Assembly: GCA_003644325.1 (NCBI GenBank)
Contig: QNCA01000012.1
Coordinates: forward strand, 1 to 12,151
Length of the DNA stretch: 12,151 nucleotides
Direction of reading: 5' to 3'
Source of the DNA: Planctomycetota bacterium
GTDB taxonomy: Bacteria > Planctomycetota > B129-G9
The position numbers and the translations under genes are program-made. Shown here piece after piece: positions 1 through 10,248 of the stretch. The notes below the pieces were generated by a model. It was given only the letters and a program-made list of their open reading frames with translations. It was not told the DNA's origin and made no database searches. How positions within the stretch are numbered: position 1 is the stretch's first letter; every line of letters starts with the position of its first letter.

Positions 1-4
1 CGAT

Positions 5-27
5 CCGTTCCGACAAGGGCGGAACGG
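5..27. repeat. Perfect inverted repeat (hairpin)
   Basis: CCGTTCCG (5-12) is exactly complementary to CGGAACGG (20-27), with a 7-base loop. No T-run follows on either strand, so it is not a canonical intrinsic terminator. It may be part of the adjacent palindrome cluster or the end of a transcript from either side. Confidence 0.5.
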
Positions 28-37
28 CTCCGTAATT

Positions 38-97
38 GGTGACAGTCACCGAGGTTAACAAAAACTCAGTCAACTTGAGTAGATTAGTGACTGTCAC
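38..97. repeat. Pair of related palindromes GTGAC-N-GTCAC
   Basis: GGTGACAGTCACC (38-50) is a perfect 6+1+6 palindrome. GTGACTGTCAC (87-97) is a perfect 5+1+5 version of the same motif. The flanking bases resemble each other better when the second copy is read in inverse orientation to the first, as in REP-like or IS200-type end repeats. No transposase is visible in the window, so the element class is inference. Confidence 0.5.
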
Positions 98-2610: not shown

Positions 2611-3375
2611 GTGGAGAAAGAGAAAAAGGCCGTTGCAAAAGGCGGCAGGGCCATACGGCGCCTCCTCGTGGCGCCGTGCGCTTTGCTGGTGTGCCTTTGT
2701 TGGTGCGGCAACGCTTTCGCACGGGCGGGCGAGGACGAGGCACCGCCCCCGTCCACCGGGGAAACTCCTTCCGTATTGCCCGGGGATACGCCCGCAGCCG
2801 GCGGCAAGGGCGAGCGCCCCCTGGAGTCCGGCGTCGATATTCCCTCCAGTCCGGGCGAGTTCTACCTGCCCAGGCGTGCCGAAGGCGAGGTGGTGCGCGT
2901 CTCACCGCACGGCATTACAATGACCTACACGGACGCCGAGATGGGCTACGTGACCACGGTCACCGCCAAGAAGGCCGTCACCTGGATAACGCAGAGAAAG
3001 ATACTCCAGCCGGACGGCAGGCGCAAGTCGGTCCAGCAGGTGGAAATTTACGCCGAGGGCGACGTGATAATCGTACAGAAGAACGCGTTGACCGGCGTCG
3101 AAAACAGGGGTTGCTGCAAGAAACTGTATTTTGACTTCCTGAACAACAAGGGCGTGATGCTGGACGCCTGGGTGAAGTTCTACGAGCCCCGCGGCGACCA
3201 GTATCTTTACATGACGGCCGATGAGATCCGCCAACTGGCCACCGATGAGGCGAACACCACGCGCCTGAGACTCCTGGGGGCGCGCTTTACCAACGATGAG
3301 TACGGCAGGCCGATGTTGCACATGGACGCCAGAACCGTCGATATCGAACAGAAGCGAAAACAGGTGCCCCGCTAG
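2611..3375 (+). CDS. lptD: LptD-like protein, N-terminal half (OstA/LptA-like periplasmic domain), ends at in-frame TAG
   Basis: This is the periplasmic part of an LptD-type LPS-assembly protein. LptD receives lipopolysaccharide from the LptA bridge and inserts it into the outer membrane. From the GTG at 2611 the product begins with a basic n-region and a Cys/Leu-rich hydrophobic core, with a likely signal peptidase I site after Ala-Phe-Ala at residue 37. A Pro/Gly-rich acidic linker follows. Then comes a beta-rich domain (about 90-254) whose repeating strands (VEIYAEGDVIIVQ, KLYFDF, ADEIRQ) fit the OstA jelly-roll. A start at 2515 would add 32 residues of poor quality. The frame stops at TAG (3373-3375), but the same frame continues without a shift into the beta-barrel. 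Without the TAG, one protein of about 856 residues would result, close to the 784 of E. coli LptD. I therefore consider this half of a single interrupted gene. Confidence 0.7.
   Translation: MEKEKKAVAKGGRAIRRLLVAPCALLVCLCWCGNAFARAGEDEAPPPSTGETPSVLPGDTPAAGGKGERPLESGVDIPSSPGEFYLPRRAEGEVVRVSPHGITMTYTDAEMGYVTTVTAKKAVTWITQRKILQPDGRRKSVQQVEIYAEGDVIIVQKNALTGVENRGCCKKLYFDFLNNKGVMLDAWVKFYEPRGDQYLYMTADEIRQLATDEANTTRLRLLGARFTNDEYGRPMLHMDARTVDIEQKRKQVPR
3373..3375 (+). other. In-frame TAG splitting the lptD-like gene
   Basis: The codons around it read Q-V-P-R-TAG-V-H-G-K-S-V-V-R-F. Frames before and after are identical (2611 and 3403 differ by a multiple of three) and there is no other stop until 5179. 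TAG also ends the lptD-like, ugd and coaD genes here, so it is a genuine stop in this genome. A single base change from CAG, AAG, GAG, TGG, TTG, TCG, TAC or TAT would produce it. Confidence 0.9.
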
Positions 3376-3402
3376 GTACATGGCAAGTCGGTCGTCCGTT
3401 TT

Positions 3403-5181
3403 GTGGCGAAGAACGTGGTCGCAAAAGTTCGGGACGTGCCGTTGTTCTACCTGCCTTTTCTTTCCGCCGCCAGCAGAAACCGCTATTTCCTGAAGTCATT
3501 CCGCACCGGGCACTCCTCAAAGTTCGGCACCTTCGTGCTGACCAAGTGGGATCTTAACAAGATGGGCCTGCTGGACAACGACTGGAGCAAACTGACGCTC
3601 AGGCTGGATATGTACAGCAAGCGCGGGTTGGGAGTCGGGTTCGATTTTGACTACGCCCGGAAGAACTACAGGGGATATATTGAGGGTTATTTCATTCATG
3701 ACACGGGCAAGGACCGCGTGGGGCCGTGGCGTCTGGAGCCTTCTCAGGAGAGTCGCGGCCGCATTCGCGTCGTGCACAAGCAGGACCTGGGCAACGGGTG
3801 GAAGGCCAACCTGGAGATAAGCAAATTGAGCGACCGCGGGTTCCTGATGGAGTTCTATGAAGAGGAATTCGACGAGGGCAAGGACCAGGACACGCAACTG
3901 TTCATCTGGCGCACATCCCGCCATACCAAACTGAGCATGCTGACCCGGCCCCGGATAAACAGTTTTATTACCACCACGGAATACCTGCCCCGCCTGAGGG
4001 CCAGCGCCGTGGCCTGGCCGATGCTGAAGGACTTCGTGTATGTCTCCTTCGATTCGCAGATAGCCAACGTGCGCCGCAACTTCGACAAGGCATATACAAT
4101 CAGCGATGAAAGGATGGTACGCGGGGACATCAACACGGAATTCGCCACGCCGTTCAGCCTGGGCATATTCCAGTTCAACCCCTGCCTGGGACTCCGCGGG
4201 ACGTTCTACGACGCGACGCTCAGCCATGGAGGCGGCGTGGGGCGCTTTACCGGGTACAGCGGCGTGGAAGCGGCGACACGGTTCTCAAGAATTTACGAGA
4301 ACATCCTGGGCCAGGAGCGCCTGCGCCACATTATACGCCCTTATGTAAAGATTTACCACGTGTTCGAAAACACCCGGGACCCGTTGCGCCTCTACCAGGC
4401 GGATTCGGTGGACTTGCCGGACAAGCGCAGGATATACACCTTCGGCGTCAGGCAGGTGTTCCAGGGCAAGCGCGGCGAGCCCGGCAAGGGGCGTTCATTC
4501 GACGCCCTCACCGTTGATATGCGGTTCAACTTCTTCAGCGACGACGATCCCCCGGCGTTCTTCGTCAATCCCGCCGGGCTGAGGAATACGGCCTACTACA
4601 GGGGGCTCAGGTTTACGGACAACTTCAAGGGCGATGTGGAGTGGAACCTGTACGAAAATCTGACGCTGTTCGGCGGGTGGGAGATGAACCTGGATACGGA
4701 CCGCTTTGACGTGTATGACTACGGCTTCCGCCTGACACCCTCCCCCAGGTCCTCGCTGACGGTCAGAAACTACTTCGTGCGCAACGACGGCACATCGAAC
4801 TTTGCATCCTTCATGAACATATTCCCGGCGGAGATCGACCGGGACAACACATTCTTCCCTTACGGACCCGTCACGGACTTCCGCGAGCGAAACGTGCTGG
4901 AGGTGGATTTTTACTGGGAGGCCAGTGAAAAGTGGGCGTTCGCAATGGGGACCGAGTATGATTTCGAGAACTCGCGCTCGTTGGAACACAGTATCGTGGT
5001 TCGGCGCTATTTCCACCACTGGGTTCTGGACGTGGGCGTGAAGTACGACCGCGACGACCGCGACACCACGCTGTCAATATCGTTTTCACCGAGGGCGACC
5101 ACCAGGAGATTCGTCAAGACACGACGCGAGTACCAGGCGCGAGGCGGCGCCGGTATGGGGCGGAATGCGTCCGGGGAATAG
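3403..5181 (+). CDS. lptD: LptD-like protein, C-terminal outer-membrane beta-barrel half
   Basis: This frame encodes the barrel part of the LptD-like transporter. It starts with the family's junction motif DVPLFYLPFLS (about residues 11-21), where the periplasmic domain meets the barrel. It continues as alternating amphipathic strands with many Tyr, Phe, Arg and Asp residues. Typical LptD barrel pieces include RYFLKSFRTGHSSKFG near the start, YLPRLRAS and RHIIRPYVKIYHVF in the middle, and repeated short strand-turn-strand units up to the end. The GTG at 3403 is a nominal start only: it has no Shine-Dalgarno site, and the product would lack a signal peptide and could not reach the outer membrane alone. 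The open frame actually extends up to the TAG at 3373. The sequence therefore makes sense only as the continuation of 2611-3375, by read-through or in an unmutated allele. ugd follows after 32 bases. Confidence 0.75.
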   Translation: MAKNVVAKVRDVPLFYLPFLSAASRNRYFLKSFRTGHSSKFGTFVLTKWDLNKMGLLDNDWSKLTLRLDMYSKRGLGVGFDFDYARKNYRGYIEGYFIHDTGKDRVGPWRLEPSQESRGRIRVVHKQDLGNGWKANLEISKLSDRGFLMEFYEEEFDEGKDQDTQLFIWRTSRHTKLSMLTRPRINSFITTTEYLPRLRASAVAWPMLKDFVYVSFDSQIANVRRNFDKAYTISDERMVRGDINTEFATPFSLGIFQFNPCLGLRGTFYDATLSHGGGVGRFTGYSGVEAATRFSRIYENILGQERLRHIIRPYVKIYHVFENTRDPLRLYQADSVDLPDKRRIYTFGVRQVFQGKRGEPGKGRSFDALTVDMRFNFFSDDDPPAFFVNPAGLRNTAYYRGLRFTDNFKGDVEWNLYENLTLFGGWEMNLDTDRFDVYDYGFRLTPSPRSSLTVRNYFVRNDGTSNFASFMNIFPAEIDRDNTFFPYGPVTDFRERNVLEVDFYWEASEKWAFAMGTEYDFENSRSLEHSIVVRRYFHHWVLDVGVKYDRDDRDTTLSISFSPRATTRRFVKTRREYQARGGAGMGRNASGE

Positions 5182-5213: not shown

Positions 5214-6503
5214 ATGAACATATGCATCGTTGGAACGGGCTACGTGGGTTTGGTTACTGGAACGATTTTCGCCCACAAGGGCCACACCGTTATTTGCATC
5301 GACAAGGAAGAAGACAAGATTCAGATGCTCAAGGAGGGCATAATGCCCATCTACGAGCCGGGACTGGAAGAAATGGTGAAGAGCAACGCAGCCGAGGGCC
5401 GGTTGCGGTTTTCCACGGACATGGCAGAAGGGGTGAAATCCTCCCAGATAATCTTTATTGCCGTCGGCACTCCGCCTAGAGCGGACGGACGCGCCGACCT
5501 CTCCTACATCGAGCAGGTCGCGCGGCAGATAGCGCGGCACATGAACGAATACAAGATAGTCGTGGAGAAGAGCACCGTGCCCGTCCAAACCGGCGAGAAG
5601 GTGCAAATGACAATCGAGAGGAACATCAAGGAGGCCGTGGAATTCGACGTGGTCAGCAACCCGGAGTTTCTCAAGGAAGGCTCGGCGATAGAAGACGCCC
5701 TTAACCCGGACCGCATCGTTGTCGGCACGTCCAGCGAACGGGCGCGCAAGGTCATGGAGGAACTGTACAAGGATTTCAACGCGCCGATTATCACCACCGA
5801 CGTGAAAAGCGCCGAGATAATCAAGCACGCGGCGAACTCGTTCCTGGCGCTCAAGATTTCCTATATCAACGCGGTGGCGAACGTCTGCGAACTGGCCGGG
5901 GCCAACGTGATGGAGGTTGCCAAGGGTATGGGCCTGGACAGGCGTATCGGAAGGCGGTTTCTATACGCCGGCCTGGGCTATGGCGGGTCCTGTTTCCCGA
6001 AGGACATAGACGCCTTCGCGCGCATATCACAGGAGTTGGGCTACGAATTCCCAATGCTGCGCCAAGTCCAACAAATCAACAGGGAACAGCGTACAAAACT
6101 AATTAAGAAGATAGAAGAAGAAATCTGGATACTTAAAGGAAAGACAATCGGCATACTGGGACTGGCGTTCAAGCCCAACACCGACGACATGCGCGAGGCG
6201 CCGGCCATCACCATAATTGAAGAACTGCAAAAGCGAGGCGCGGCAATAAAGGCGTATGACCCGAAGGCGATGAACAACGCCAAGAGTGTGCTCGACAAGG
6301 TCGAGTACTGCCAGGACCCCTATGGGGCGGCGAAGGACGCGGACTGCCTTGTCATCGCGACAGAGTGGAATGAATTCAAGGAGATGGACCTGACAAAGAT
6401 AAAGCAACTGATGAATCACCCGACCATCGTGGACGGGCGCAATATCTTTGACCCCAAGAAAATGATAGAAATGGGGTTCAATTACAGGAGCGTCGGAAGA
6501 TAG
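5214..6503 (+). CDS. ugd: UDP-glucose 6-dehydrogenase
   Basis: This cytoplasmic enzyme oxidises UDP-glucose to UDP-glucuronate in two NAD-dependent steps, supplying sugar acids for LPS, capsule or other polysaccharides. The 429-residue chain is full length for the short bacterial type. It has the N-terminal Rossmann motif GTGYVG (7-12), VGTP (84-87), the substrate-binding NPEFLKEG (149-156) and the catalytic region. Lys204 (EIIKHAANSF), Cys260 (GYGGSCFPKD) and Asp264 coincide in number with the catalytic residues known from the Streptococcus pyogenes enzyme. The C-terminal UDP-binding domain begins near 310 (GLAFKPNTDDMREAP, 316-330) and ends in a typical G-x-NYRSVGR tail. GGGAGG (5204-5209) precedes the ATG. 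It lies 32 bases after the lptD-like gene and 19 before coaD, consistent with one transcript. UDP-mannose or UDP-GlcNAc dehydrogenases are less likely given the motif fit. Confidence 0.95.
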   Translation: MNICIVGTGYVGLVTGTIFAHKGHTVICIDKEEDKIQMLKEGIMPIYEPGLEEMVKSNAAEGRLRFSTDMAEGVKSSQIIFIAVGTPPRADGRADLSYIEQVARQIARHMNEYKIVVEKSTVPVQTGEKVQMTIERNIKEAVEFDVVSNPEFLKEGSAIEDALNPDRIVVGTSSERARKVMEELYKDFNAPIITTDVKSAEIIKHAANSFLALKISYINAVANVCELAGANVMEVAKGMGLDRRIGRRFLYAGLGYGGSCFPKDIDAFARISQELGYEFPMLRQVQQINREQRTKLIKKIEEEIWILKGKTIGILGLAFKPNTDDMREAPAITIIEELQKRGAAIKAYDPKAMNNAKSVLDKVEYCQDPYGAAKDADCLVIATEWNEFKEMDLTKIKQLMNHPTIVDGRNIFDPKKMIEMGFNYRSVGR

Positions 6504-6522: not shown

Positions 6523-7038
6523 ATGGCGGAAGAACACAAAAAGGTATCGACCGTGGCGGTCTATCCGGGCACATTTGACCCGGTGACCTACGGCCACTTG
6601 AACCTGATTTGCCGCGGAGCGAAGTTGTTCGCGAAACTTATCGTCGGCGTCGCGCGCGGCGGCATGAAGGAGACTTTGTTCACGCTCGAAGAGCGCGTTG
6701 AAATGATACAACACGCAATCAAGGACATTCCCAATGTGAAAGTGGAAAGTTTTGACGGCCTGACCGTGGATTTCGTCAGGCGAAAGGGGGGCAACATCCT
6801 CCTGCGCGGCATACGAACCGTTACCGACTTCGAGTACGAGTACCAGATAGCGCTGAGCAATCGTTCCATGGCAAAGGACATTGAAACGATATTTGTCATC
6901 CCCGGCGAAGAATTTTCCTTTATCTCCTCCAGCATCGTCAAGGACATCGTCAGCGCCGGCGGAGACGGCAGCGCCTTCGTGCCGCAGGAGGTAAACGAAA
7001 AGATGCGAGCGAAACTCGCTCCGCGAAGGAATCGTTAG
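6523..7038 (+). CDS. coaD: Phosphopantetheine adenylyltransferase
   Basis: CoaD transfers AMP from ATP to 4'-phosphopantetheine, the penultimate step of coenzyme A synthesis, in the cytoplasm as a hexamer. The protein has 171 residues, slightly longer than the usual 160 because of a short N-terminal extension (about nine residues) and a basic tail. The nucleotidyltransferase signature is present: YPGTFDPVTYGH (14-25), with the T-x-G-H motif at 22-25. It is followed by RGIRTVTDFEYEYQ (95-108), the phosphopantetheine-contacting region, and by ISSSIVKDI (134-142), the counterpart of the ISST-x-VR motif that binds ATP phosphates. A GGAG (6513-6516) lies six bases before the ATG. It is the last gene of the probable lptD-ugd-coaD unit; a hairpin follows. 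A close linkage of coaD with envelope genes is not functionally meaningful by itself. Confidence 0.95.
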   Translation: MAEEHKKVSTVAVYPGTFDPVTYGHLNLICRGAKLFAKLIVGVARGGMKETLFTLEERVEMIQHAIKDIPNVKVESFDGLTVDFVRRKGGNILLRGIRTVTDFEYEYQIALSNRSMAKDIETIFVIPGEEFSFISSSIVKDIVSAGGDGSAFVPQEVNEKMRAKLAPRRNR

Positions 7039-7572: not shown

Positions 7573-10248
7573 ATGAAAACAAGAATAATAATAATGTTGC
7601 TTGTGATCGCGACGGCGGCTTCACTCGCATCCTGCAAGGCCGGCGACCCCGCCGTCATCAACGTCAAACCTGTCGGCGAATATGCGGATGAAAGCAGGGG
7701 CCTTTACCTGCGTACCCTGGAGAACGGCCTGCGGGTAGTGGTGAAGGAAAACCACGTGGCGCCGGTCGTACACGTCTACCTGGTTGTAAAGACCGGCTCG
7801 ATGCACGAAGAGGAATACCTTGGCTACGGAATGTCGCACATCATCGAGCACGTCATGTCCGGCGGCACAACCATCCATCGCACCGAGGAAGAAACTAAAA
7901 AGTTGCTCCAATCCATCGGCGCCGCCAGCAACGCCTATACGACGTCTTACTGCACGGCCTATCACATGACCACCACGGCGCGTTACCTAGACCAGGCGCT
8001 CGATGTTATCTCCGACTACATGGGGTATTGTACTTTTGATAAAAAGGAACTGGAGCGGGAATTCGGCGTAATACTGAAGGAAATCGCAAAGGACGAAGAG
8101 GAACCGAACAGGATAATGTGGAAACTCTTCCTCGATACGGCCTACGACGTTCACCCCATCCGCTATCCCACTATCGGCTATCGCGAAAAGTTCCTGCGGC
8201 TGAACCGTGAAGACATTATAAAGTATTACAATCGCCGATACGTCCCGCGCAACATGGTCCTCGCGATAGGCGGCGACGTCGATGCGAAAAAAGCGCTTGA
8301 GAAGGCGGCCAAGTTCTTTGGACGCCTCGAAGACAGGCCGCTCAAGAAAGTCGTACTGGCCGGGGAGCCGAAGAAAATCGGCAAGAGATACGCCGAAGGC
8401 GAAGCGGCCATCAAGATGGCCATGCTCAGGATGGGGTTTCGCACGACCGACCTGTTCCATCCGGATATGGTAAAGACCGATATACTCTCGGCTATTCTCG
8501 GCGCCGGCAAGAGCAGCCGTTTGTATCGACGCCTGGTGGAGGAAAAACAGTTGGTCGAGAACATCGGGTCCGGCAACTGGACACCCGAATACGTTCACGG
8601 CCATCTGACCGTCTATGCCACGCTGAAGGTTGAGAACCTGGACGCGGCCCAAAAAGAAGTCATGGATGTTATAGAAGACCTGAAAAAGAACCTTGTAAAG
8701 CAGGAAGAACTGGACCGCGTGCGGACATACCTCCGGGCCATGCGCCTGATGTACCGCCAGACCGCCGAGAAAGAGGTGCAGAGCATCGCCGGCGACGTTC
8801 GTTCAACCGGCGACCCGTTGTTTGACAGCAAGTACTTGAAGGCCATGGACGGTGTCACGCCGGAAATGGTCCGCGATATGGCCCGTAAATACCTGAACGA
8901 AGACAACCTGACAACCGTAGTGCTCAAACCGAAGACCGTGACCGGCCCGAAGAATGAACTGCCGCCGCTTGATGTAAAAAAGAAGGAAAGCGGCATAATC
9001 AAATATACGCTGAAGAACGGCCTGACCGTCCTGCTCAAGCGCAACCCGGAACTGCCGCTGGTATCCATGCAGACATACAGCCGCGGCGGCGTGCTGTTCG
9101 ACGGCGACAAGCCCGGCCTGAGCAACTTCATGGCGAACATGCTCATGCGCGGCACCTCCGGTAAAAATGCTGAAGAGATTACAAACACGCTGGAATCGAT
9201 GGGCGGAGAGATGAAACCTGTTTCCGGCAATAATACATTCGGCATGGAAATGACCGTCCTGCGCAAGGACCTTGAACCGGGGCTGGACCTTTTCGCCGAC
9301 GTTCTGTTGCGGCCCGCCTTCGATAAAAAAGAGGTGGAGCGAGTCCGGAAAAATATTCTGTTCGAAATTGACAACTTGTCCAATAACTGGATAGAGGAAA
9401 TTCGTTATAATTTCCGCAAAACCAGGTTCGGCGGTCATCCTTATGCAAATCACCGGCTTGGAAATAAGGAAAGCGTGGGGAAAATATCGTCGAAGGACCT
9501 GAAAGATTTCCATGAAAAGTACTTCGTGGGAAGCAACACGGTCCTTGCGATATTCGGCGACATTGATATCGAAGAGACGAAGGCCCTGGTAGCGCAGAAA
9601 TTCGGTGCAATGTCCGAAGGCGCTGTCAACCACAAGGCCATAGCCCCTCCGCCGCCTATCGGAAAGGGCGCGAAGGGTGTCGAGTCTCCGGTGGTAATTC
9701 CCGTGAAGCGTAAATCGATAAGCGTAATCCTGGCGACGAACGGCCTGCCGATAGGAGACGAATCCGGGCCGGATATGACCGTTCTGAAATTGATGTTCGA
9801 CAGCAGGCTGCACGAGGCCTTGCGCGGCCGCAATGATTACGTGTATCTCGTCTGGGCATACAACTCGCCCGGGTTTAATACCGGCACGTTCCAGATACTT
9901 GCCCAGACGACGCCCGACAAGTATGACGCCGTGATACGCGAAATTCGCTCGGAAATTGAAAAGATGAAAAAAGGCGAATTTACGGACGAGGAACTGGAGA
10001 ACGCGAAACGCCGTGCGGTATCCTACGTTGAACTAGGCTCACAGACAAACGCCGACCAGGCCGGTATCGCCGCGCTCAACGAGTTGTACGGTATCGGCTT
10101 CGACTATATGGCCGAGTATCCCACGAGGCTGGCAAAGGTGTCGCGCGAAGACATCATGAAGTTGATTAACCGATGCTTCGGCGAGTGGATGATAGTTGAA
10201 ACCCGCCCCGCGGAAAAGGCCGGAGAAACAGGCCCGGCGGCGGAGTAA
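7573..10248 (+). CDS. M16-family zinc metallopeptidase, lipoprotein, double-module
   Basis: This 891-residue protein is a single-chain M16 (pitrilysin/insulinase-type) peptidase anchored as a lipoprotein. The signal MKTRIIIMLL... ends in lipobox LASC with Cys21. The first module (about 45-250) has the inverted zinc motif HIIEH (His89, Glu92, His93). Glu170 (VILKEI) is placed 77 residues after His93, matching the third zinc ligand of pitrilysin. A non-catalytic M16 domain follows (about 250-460, with SRLYRRLVEE). A second pair of modules starts near 478 (YTLKNGLTVLL); there the zinc motif is replaced by LSNFMANML (about 516-524), so this half is structural, as in many bacterial M16 proteins. 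Members degrade peptides or process exported proteins. The periplasmic location and substrate here are inferred from the lipobox. The ATG has an A-rich leader and no clear Shine-Dalgarno site. The gene follows ridA; a hairpin spans its stop codon. Confidence 0.93.
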   Translation: MKTRIIIMLLVIATAASLASCKAGDPAVINVKPVGEYADESRGLYLRTLENGLRVVVKENHVAPVVHVYLVVKTGSMHEEEYLGYGMSHIIEHVMSGGTTIHRTEEETKKLLQSIGAASNAYTTSYCTAYHMTTTARYLDQALDVISDYMGYCTFDKKELEREFGVILKEIAKDEEEPNRIMWKLFLDTAYDVHPIRYPTIGYREKFLRLNREDIIKYYNRRYVPRNMVLAIGGDVDAKKALEKAAKFFGRLEDRPLKKVVLAGEPKKIGKRYAEGEAAIKMAMLRMGFRTTDLFHPDMVKTDILSAILGAGKSSRLYRRLVEEKQLVENIGSGNWTPEYVHGHLTVYATLKVENLDAAQKEVMDVIEDLKKNLVKQEELDRVRTYLRAMRLMYRQTAEKEVQSIAGDVRSTGDPLFDSKYLKAMDGVTPEMVRDMARKYLNEDNLTTVVLKPKTVTGPKNELPPLDVKKKESGIIKYTLKNGLTVLLKRNPELPLVSMQTYSRGGVLFDGDKPGLSNFMANMLMRGTSGKNAEEITNTLESMGGEMKPVSGNNTFGMEMTVLRKDLEPGLDLFADVLLRPAFDKKEVERVRKNILFEIDNLSNNWIEEIRYNFRKTRFGGHPYANHRLGNKESVGKISSKDLKDFHEKYFVGSNTVLAIFGDIDIEETKALVAQKFGAMSEGAVNHKAIAPPPPIGKGAKGVESPVVIPVKRKSISVILATNGLPIGDESGPDMTVLKLMFDSRLHEALRGRNDYVYLVWAYNSPGFNTGTFQILAQTTPDKYDAVIREIRSEIEKMKKGEFTDEELENAKRRAVSYVELGSQTNADQAGIAALNELYGIGFDYMAEYPTRLAKVSREDIMKLINRCFGEWMIVETRPAEKAGETGPAAE

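What the first reader, a model, noticed from the sequence alone, without database searches (positions are those of the whole stretch)
3373..3375. In-frame amber codon divides an otherwise intact lptD-like gene
The reading frames before (from 2611) and after (to 5181) the TAG are the same frame, with no insertion or deletion. The downstream half keeps about 600 sense codons with clear LptD barrel features, starting with the junction motif DVPLFYLPFLS. The barrel half has no signal peptide and no ribosome site, so it would be useless as a separate protein. LptD is normally essential in LPS-making cells. The explanations are a sequencing or assembly error, a very recent nonsense mutation, suppression or read-through of TAG, or dispensable LptD in this lineage. 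TAG ends ugd and coaD nearby, which argues against genome-wide reassignment.
Basis: partly seen in the sequence, partly recalled or inferred. Interest (0 to 1): 0.72.

Follow-up and report, generated by a model that had tools for sequence, protein, structure and literature searches.

The report
Premature stop in a planctomycete lptD
In a draft genome of an uncultured planctomycete, the gene for the protein that delivers lipopolysaccharide to the outer membrane is cut by one stop codon that its relatives lack; this is most likely a local error or a recent private mutation, not a new way of reading the genetic code.

Summary
TAG at 3373-3375 lies in frame between 254 upstream codons (from GTG 2611) and 601 downstream codons of one lptD gene, with no indel. 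The window is contig C12 of a metagenome-type assembly (2.28 Mb, 471 contigs, 79.7% complete) in which no second LptD match was found. All 10 relatives aligned over the site have sense codons. An intact relative is modelled as LptD, with the site in a low-confidence loop.

TAG is a normal stop here: 107 of 428 closed long ORFs end in it, and what follows looks as non-coding as after TAA or TGA. No CUA tRNA was found, in an incomplete set. Genome-wide recoding and conserved read-through are not supported. A wrong consensus base fits best; a recent nonsense allele comes second. Without reads I cannot separate them.

One loose end: in 35% of the genome the only other in-frame interruption I found is also TAG, in a TPR gene where 6 of the 7 closest homologues have Tyr. 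Release factor 1 was not found in this assembly or its genus-mate; its neighbour L31 is missing too, so a gap is likely. Read-through as tyrosine is unlikely but not excluded.

The parts
2611..3372 (+). Upstream part of lptD: N-terminal hydrophobic stretch and N-terminal domain, 254 codons from GTG
   Evidence: Start lines up with the GTG start of the intact G001 gene; no Pfam match on its own
3373..3375 (+). In-frame TAG
   Evidence: sense codon in 10 of 10 aligned relatives
3376..5181 (+). Downstream part of lptD: 601 codons with the barrel, ending in TAG
   Evidence: PF04453 over cut-off; aligned to intact relatives
3403..3405 (+). First in-frame GTG after the stop; start of the 592-residue ORF that the protein collection holds; no obvious ribosome site
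5214..6503 (+). ugd (UDP-glucose/GDP-mannose dehydrogenase family), ends in TAG; context and control
   Evidence: Pfam; the G001 gene also ends in TAG
6523..7038 (+). coaD-like cytidylyltransferase gene, ends in TAG; context
   Evidence: Pfam; stop

Best explanation
The TAG is a wrong consensus base in a fragmented metagenome assembly, in an lptD gene that is intact in the organism. Nothing in the cell would then work differently: full-length LptD is made and exported as usual. Shown: the TAG and its frame, its absence in relatives, constraint on both parts up to the split from G001, and the normal use of TAG as a stop. Inferred: that the base is wrong. If the base is right, the first rival applies; the two together (a private single-base change) have about 0.77.
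For: Single copy and otherwise intact: 601 downstream codons without another stop or frameshift. The stop is absent from 10 of 10 aligned relatives, including the genus-mate. Both parts are constrained against G001. TAG terminates genes normally. LPS genes are typical of the genus and phylum, so a broken lptD would be costly. The source is a draft in 471 contigs, 79.7% complete, of a species with a high-copy repeat at many contig ends. Two nonsense changes in 796 kb, with 3.0% of substitutions being nonsense, would need roughly 1 wrong base in 10,000 (my arithmetic), which I judge possible for a thinly covered metagenome.
Against: The protein collection holds the exact 592-residue downstream ORF as a cluster with 9 member sequences and shows no near-identical intact protein, which hints that the broken form was met more than once; the lengths and samples of the members are not shown. 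The collection's clusters are not clean, and the upstream part has no counterpart of its own length there, which I cannot reconcile. Both interruptions found are TAG, and the second is at a mostly-Tyr position. The depth of this contig is not known.
Confidence: 0.5

Rival explanations
1. A real and recent nonsense allele in the sampled strain. Ribosomes stop after the N-terminal domain, the barrel is not made or not exported, and the gene is a very young pseudogene or a short-lived polymorphism.
For: Same sequence evidence as for error. In-frame stops in bacterial genes are described as widespread and mostly short-lived (PMC7918605; abstract and part 1 of 2 of its Results read). The cluster of 9 member sequences behind the 592-residue ORF fits better here.
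Against: LptD is expected to be needed where LPS genes are present (the need in Gram-negative bacteria is established knowledge); a strain with a broken single copy should be rare.
Confidence: 0.27
2. The TAG is real and is read through, at least in part, as an amino acid, perhaps tyrosine by a near-cognate tRNA, helped by weak or absent release factor 1, so that full-length LptD is made.
For: Two in-frame TAGs and no TAA or TGA interruptions were seen among 52 junctions in 796 kb. The sister lineage has Tyr at the lptD site, and 6 of the 7 closest full-length homologues have Tyr at the TPR site. prfA was not found in G000 or G001.
Against: 107 of 428 closed long ORFs end in TAG (one of the 107 is the upstream part of lptD itself), and TAG ends are followed by non-coding sequence. 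No CUA tRNA. TAG is not conserved at the site in relatives. Tyr at the lptD site is seen in one sister lineage only, and the column is variable. L31, the neighbour of prfA in G002, is also missing from G000 and G001, as expected of an assembly gap. The chance of two TAG-at-Tyr cases under random nonsense is about 1%, or about 8% for any two alike, judged after seeing the data.
Confidence: 0.1
3. LptD is dispensable in this lineage because LPS is not made or not exported, and the gene is decaying.
For: LptF/LptG were not found in G000 or in G002.
Against: G000 is 79.7% complete and G002 76%. LptF/LptG are in G001 and in 10 of 10 near-complete phylum members searched, LpxC is in G000, and no second lesion lies in the gene.
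Confidence: 0.04
4. The gene is split on purpose into two proteins, an N-terminal domain and a barrel.
For: The stop falls in a loop between the N-terminal domain and the strands that follow.
Against: By eye the barrel part has no signal peptide and no clear ribosome site. All 9 full-length relatives aligned keep one gene.
Confidence: 0.02

Closest known systems
LptD, the LPS-assembly outer-membrane protein (Pfam PF04453)
   Same: Downstream part over the family cut-off. The model of an intact relative matches solved LptD structures best, E 1.1e-27, and a profile of relatives finds only LptD chains in the PDB at E 0.01 (3 of 3).
   Different: Here cut by one in-frame TAG. Sequence identity to solved LptD is low (12-14% in the structural matches).
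Short-lived in-frame stop codons in bacterial genes (Belinky et al. 2021, PMC7918605; abstract and part 1 of Results read)
   Same: One in-frame stop in a gene that is otherwise constrained against its relative.
   Different: Seen in one assembly only; no same-species comparison was possible.
TAG reassigned to an amino acid, or amber suppression
   Same: TAG inside a gene where relatives have an amino acid, twice in the sampled 35%.
   Different: No CUA tRNA found, TAG is a common terminator, and no relative with TAG at the site was seen.

Membership tests
LptD | Match to the LptD barrel model PF04453 | tested here: met
   Downstream part 48.6 bits, cut-off 22.4
LptD | LptD fold: strand-rich N-terminal domain plus large barrel | tested here: met
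   Tested on the intact relative P0002, not on the window's protein; modest model (pLDDT 62.4, pTM 0.48); LptD structures lead the PDB matches
LptD | One continuous, exported polypeptide | tested here: not met
   Interrupted at 3373-3375 as the sequence stands
LptD | Partner LptE and the Lpt bridge | tested here: inconclusive
   LptE not searched; LptF/LptG not found in G000 but found in G001
TAG reassignment (recoded genome) | TAG rare or absent as terminator | tested here: not met
   107 of 428 closed ORFs of 200 or more codons; following sequence non-coding
TAG reassignment (recoded genome) | tRNA with anticodon CUA | tested here: inconclusive
   None among 30 tRNAs, but His and Asn tRNAs are missing too
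TAG reassignment (recoded genome) | Release factor 1 absent | tested here: inconclusive
   Not found in G000 or G001, with its neighbour L31 missing as well; assemblies 80% and 73% complete
Programmed read-through of one gene | Stop conserved at the same site in relatives | tested here: not met
   Sense in 10 of 10 aligned relatives
Consensus error | Reads disagree with the consensus base | not testable with these tools
   No reads available

The most novel reading that the evidence does not exclude
In this planctomycete genus release factor 1 is weak or lost, and TAG, while still ending many genes, is read as tyrosine often enough that lptD and a TPR gene can carry it inside. That would be a naturally ambiguous amber codon with tyrosine; the listings of my searches showed no such case in a bacterium.
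Probability: 0.06. Interest if true: 0.8.

Novelty: already known. Interest (0 to 1): 0.22.

Why it matters
If it is an error or a young allele, as is likely, it is a reminder that one base in a draft metagenome assembly can make an important gene look lost. If both amber sites proved real and translated, they would show a bacterium using TAG both as a stop and as tyrosine, which bears directly on how codon reassignment begins.

Tried and rejected
Second lptD: no second match at E 0.001 in the assembly. Genome-wide recoding: rejected on the use of TAG as terminator. Suppressor tRNA: none seen, set incomplete. prfA gap test through PrmC: PrmC lies on another contig than prfA in G002, so it was uninformative. 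A first scan of named genomes with the downstream part found no relatives. A second, with an alignment of relatives, returned 10 loci; two of them I take for G001 and G002 from contig length and identity (isolates CSMAG_2925 and CSMAG_2201, both titled Planctomycetota bacterium). I link the CSMAG label to the cold-seep genome catalogue from a search listing and passages of PMC10491686. One search translated the wrong frame and was not used. No Rfam match in the window.

In-frame stop scan: a codon-usage scan of 100 of 471 contigs (796,167 of 2,279,701 bases) gave 52 same-frame junctions at the lowest threshold (TGA 19, TAA 18, TAG 15). All 52 were printed and read by eye. I judged 2 to be interrupted genes and 50 to be neighbouring genes or non-coding stretches, mostly from a start codon soon after the stop and from recalled protein motifs, not from homology searches. 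The scan cannot see interruptions near gene ends or in atypical genes. In G001, 21 contigs (90,725 bases) gave 3 junctions, read as neighbouring genes. The TPR homologue alignment used 28 of 88 hits; one (P0044) does not cover the site.

Full report
What is there. The window is the whole of contig C12 of genome G000, 2,279,701 bases in 471 contigs, 79.7% complete. TAG at 3373-3375 lies in a frame that is open on both sides, and the downstream frame runs 601 codons to a TAG at 5179-5181. The same gene in the genus-mate G001 is one intact ORF of 836 codons starting with GTG, and the window's GTG at 2611 lines up with that start. The downstream part matches the LptD family over its cut-off; the upstream part matches no Pfam family. 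No other LptD match at E 0.001 is in the assembly.

It is LptD. A structure model of the intact relative P0002 (79% identical to the window's downstream part; mean pLDDT 62.4 and pTM 0.48, so modest) gives a strand-rich N-terminal domain and many further strands. The first 37 Foldseek matches in the PDB are LptD structures, the best at E 1.1e-27 (three of those titles do not name LptD, and I count them from recall of the entries). A sequence profile of relatives finds only LptD chains in the PDB at E 0.01, 3 of 3. P0002 residue 248, aligned with the TAG, lies in a stretch of pLDDT below 50 (244-252) between two strands. The stop therefore falls in a loop between the N-terminal domain and the strands that follow.

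The stop is private. Ten relatives cover the site and all have sense codons: Tyr in G001 and P0002, Arg in five, His, Val and Leu in one each. G001 and P0002 are 96% identical, so Tyr is seen in only one sister lineage and the column is variable. The residue that the window's own ancestor had is not certain. Against G001, dN/dS is 0.195 before the stop and 0.154 after it, with 0.115 for ugd. This shows constraint since the split of the two species as a whole. It does not show that the downstream part is translated today.

TAG means stop here. In 100 contigs (34.9% of the genome) the 428 closed ORFs of at least 200 codons end in TGA 209 times, TAA 112 and TAG 107; one of the 107 is the upstream part of lptD itself. 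The 20 codons after a TAG end score on average -0.111, as after TAA (-0.098) and TGA (-0.121), that is, as non-coding. ugd ends in TAG in both G000 and G001. Thirty tRNAs were found, none with anticodon CUA, but no His or Asn tRNA is in the list either, so this is weak.

A loose end, told in full. A codon-usage scan for genes cut by an in-frame stop gave 52 junctions in those 796 kb, of which I judge two to be interruptions: the lptD TAG, and a TAG on contig C11 (L077, 2796-2798) in a TPR-repeat gene. At that second site 6 of the 7 closest full-length homologues have Tyr and one has Cys; over 27 covering rows 9 have Tyr. G002 has a 40% identical match to the downstream part in an open frame of 1158 codons without a stop; G001 has only a weak match. 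I saw no TAA or TGA interruption. By codon usage, TAG at a Tyr codon is about 10% of random nonsense changes, so two such cases have about a 1% chance, or about 8% for any two alike; the comparison was made after seeing the data.

Release factor 1. The prfA model finds no match over its cut-off in G000 and none at all in G001, but does in G002 and G003. The one hit in G000 (280 bits, cut-off 423.25) I take for release factor 2 from a motif that I recall. The G002 protein as query gives the same result, with no match in G001 even at E 10. In G002 an L31 gene (named from recall of its sequence) sits just before prfA, and L31 was not found in G000 or G001. One missing stretch per assembly would explain both absences.

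Is LptD needed here? LpxC is in G000. LptF/LptG were not found in G000 or G002 but are in G001, G003 and 10 of 10 near-complete phylum members searched. Passages of PMC3422733 report LptD in all the planctomycete genomes that its authors searched. Loss of need is therefore unlikely.

Source of the change. Error, a real young nonsense allele and read-through all give the same sequence. I favour error (about 0.5), then a real allele (about 0.27), then read-through (about 0.1). For error: the assembly is a fragmented draft and relatives lack the stop. Against error: the protein collection holds the exact 592-residue downstream ORF as a cluster with 9 member sequences and shows no near-identical intact protein. 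The clusters of that collection are not clean, however: entries over 99% identical stand apart, and the upstream part has no counterpart of its own length. The depth of this contig is unknown; the contigs that I take for those of G001 and G002 are labelled 31-fold and 7-fold.

Known context. In-frame stops in bacterial genes are described as widespread, and as tending to persist for a short evolutionary time (PMC7918605; abstract and part 1 of 2 of its Results read). A screen of over 250,000 genomes for other codes (PMC8629427), of which I saw the listing and passages only, names pseudogenes and contaminating contigs as sources of false stop reassignments. I saw no bacterial TAG-to-tyrosine code in the listings; those searches do not prove absence from print.

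Verdict. Its most likely meaning is ordinary: a wrong base or a young private allele. What keeps it from being trivial is the second TAG and the missing release factor, and both would be settled by reads.

Noticed in passing
window 1-81: A copy of a high-copy dispersed repeat predicted to form three small hairpins: 76 places in 48 of 100 sampled G000 contigs, 28 of them within 120 bases of a contig end; none in 21 sampled G001 contigs. It may be why the assembly is in 471 pieces. No Rfam match.
   Followed up: partly
L077 (G000:C11) 2796-2798, + strand: A second in-frame TAG, inside a TPR-repeat gene, at a position that is Tyr in 6 of the 7 closest full-length homologues.
   Followed up: partly
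G000 and G001 assemblies: Release factor 1 and ribosomal protein L31 were not found in either, although the two genes are neighbours in G002.
   Followed up: partly
P0041 (290 aa, on a 22 kb contig of another relative): The lptD of another relative also ends early, shortly after the same domain boundary; from its odd last residues I suspect a frameshift. Its DNA was not seen.
   Followed up: no
window 7573-10248: A gene with two matched stretches each of the M16 peptidase and M16 inactive domains.
   Followed up: no
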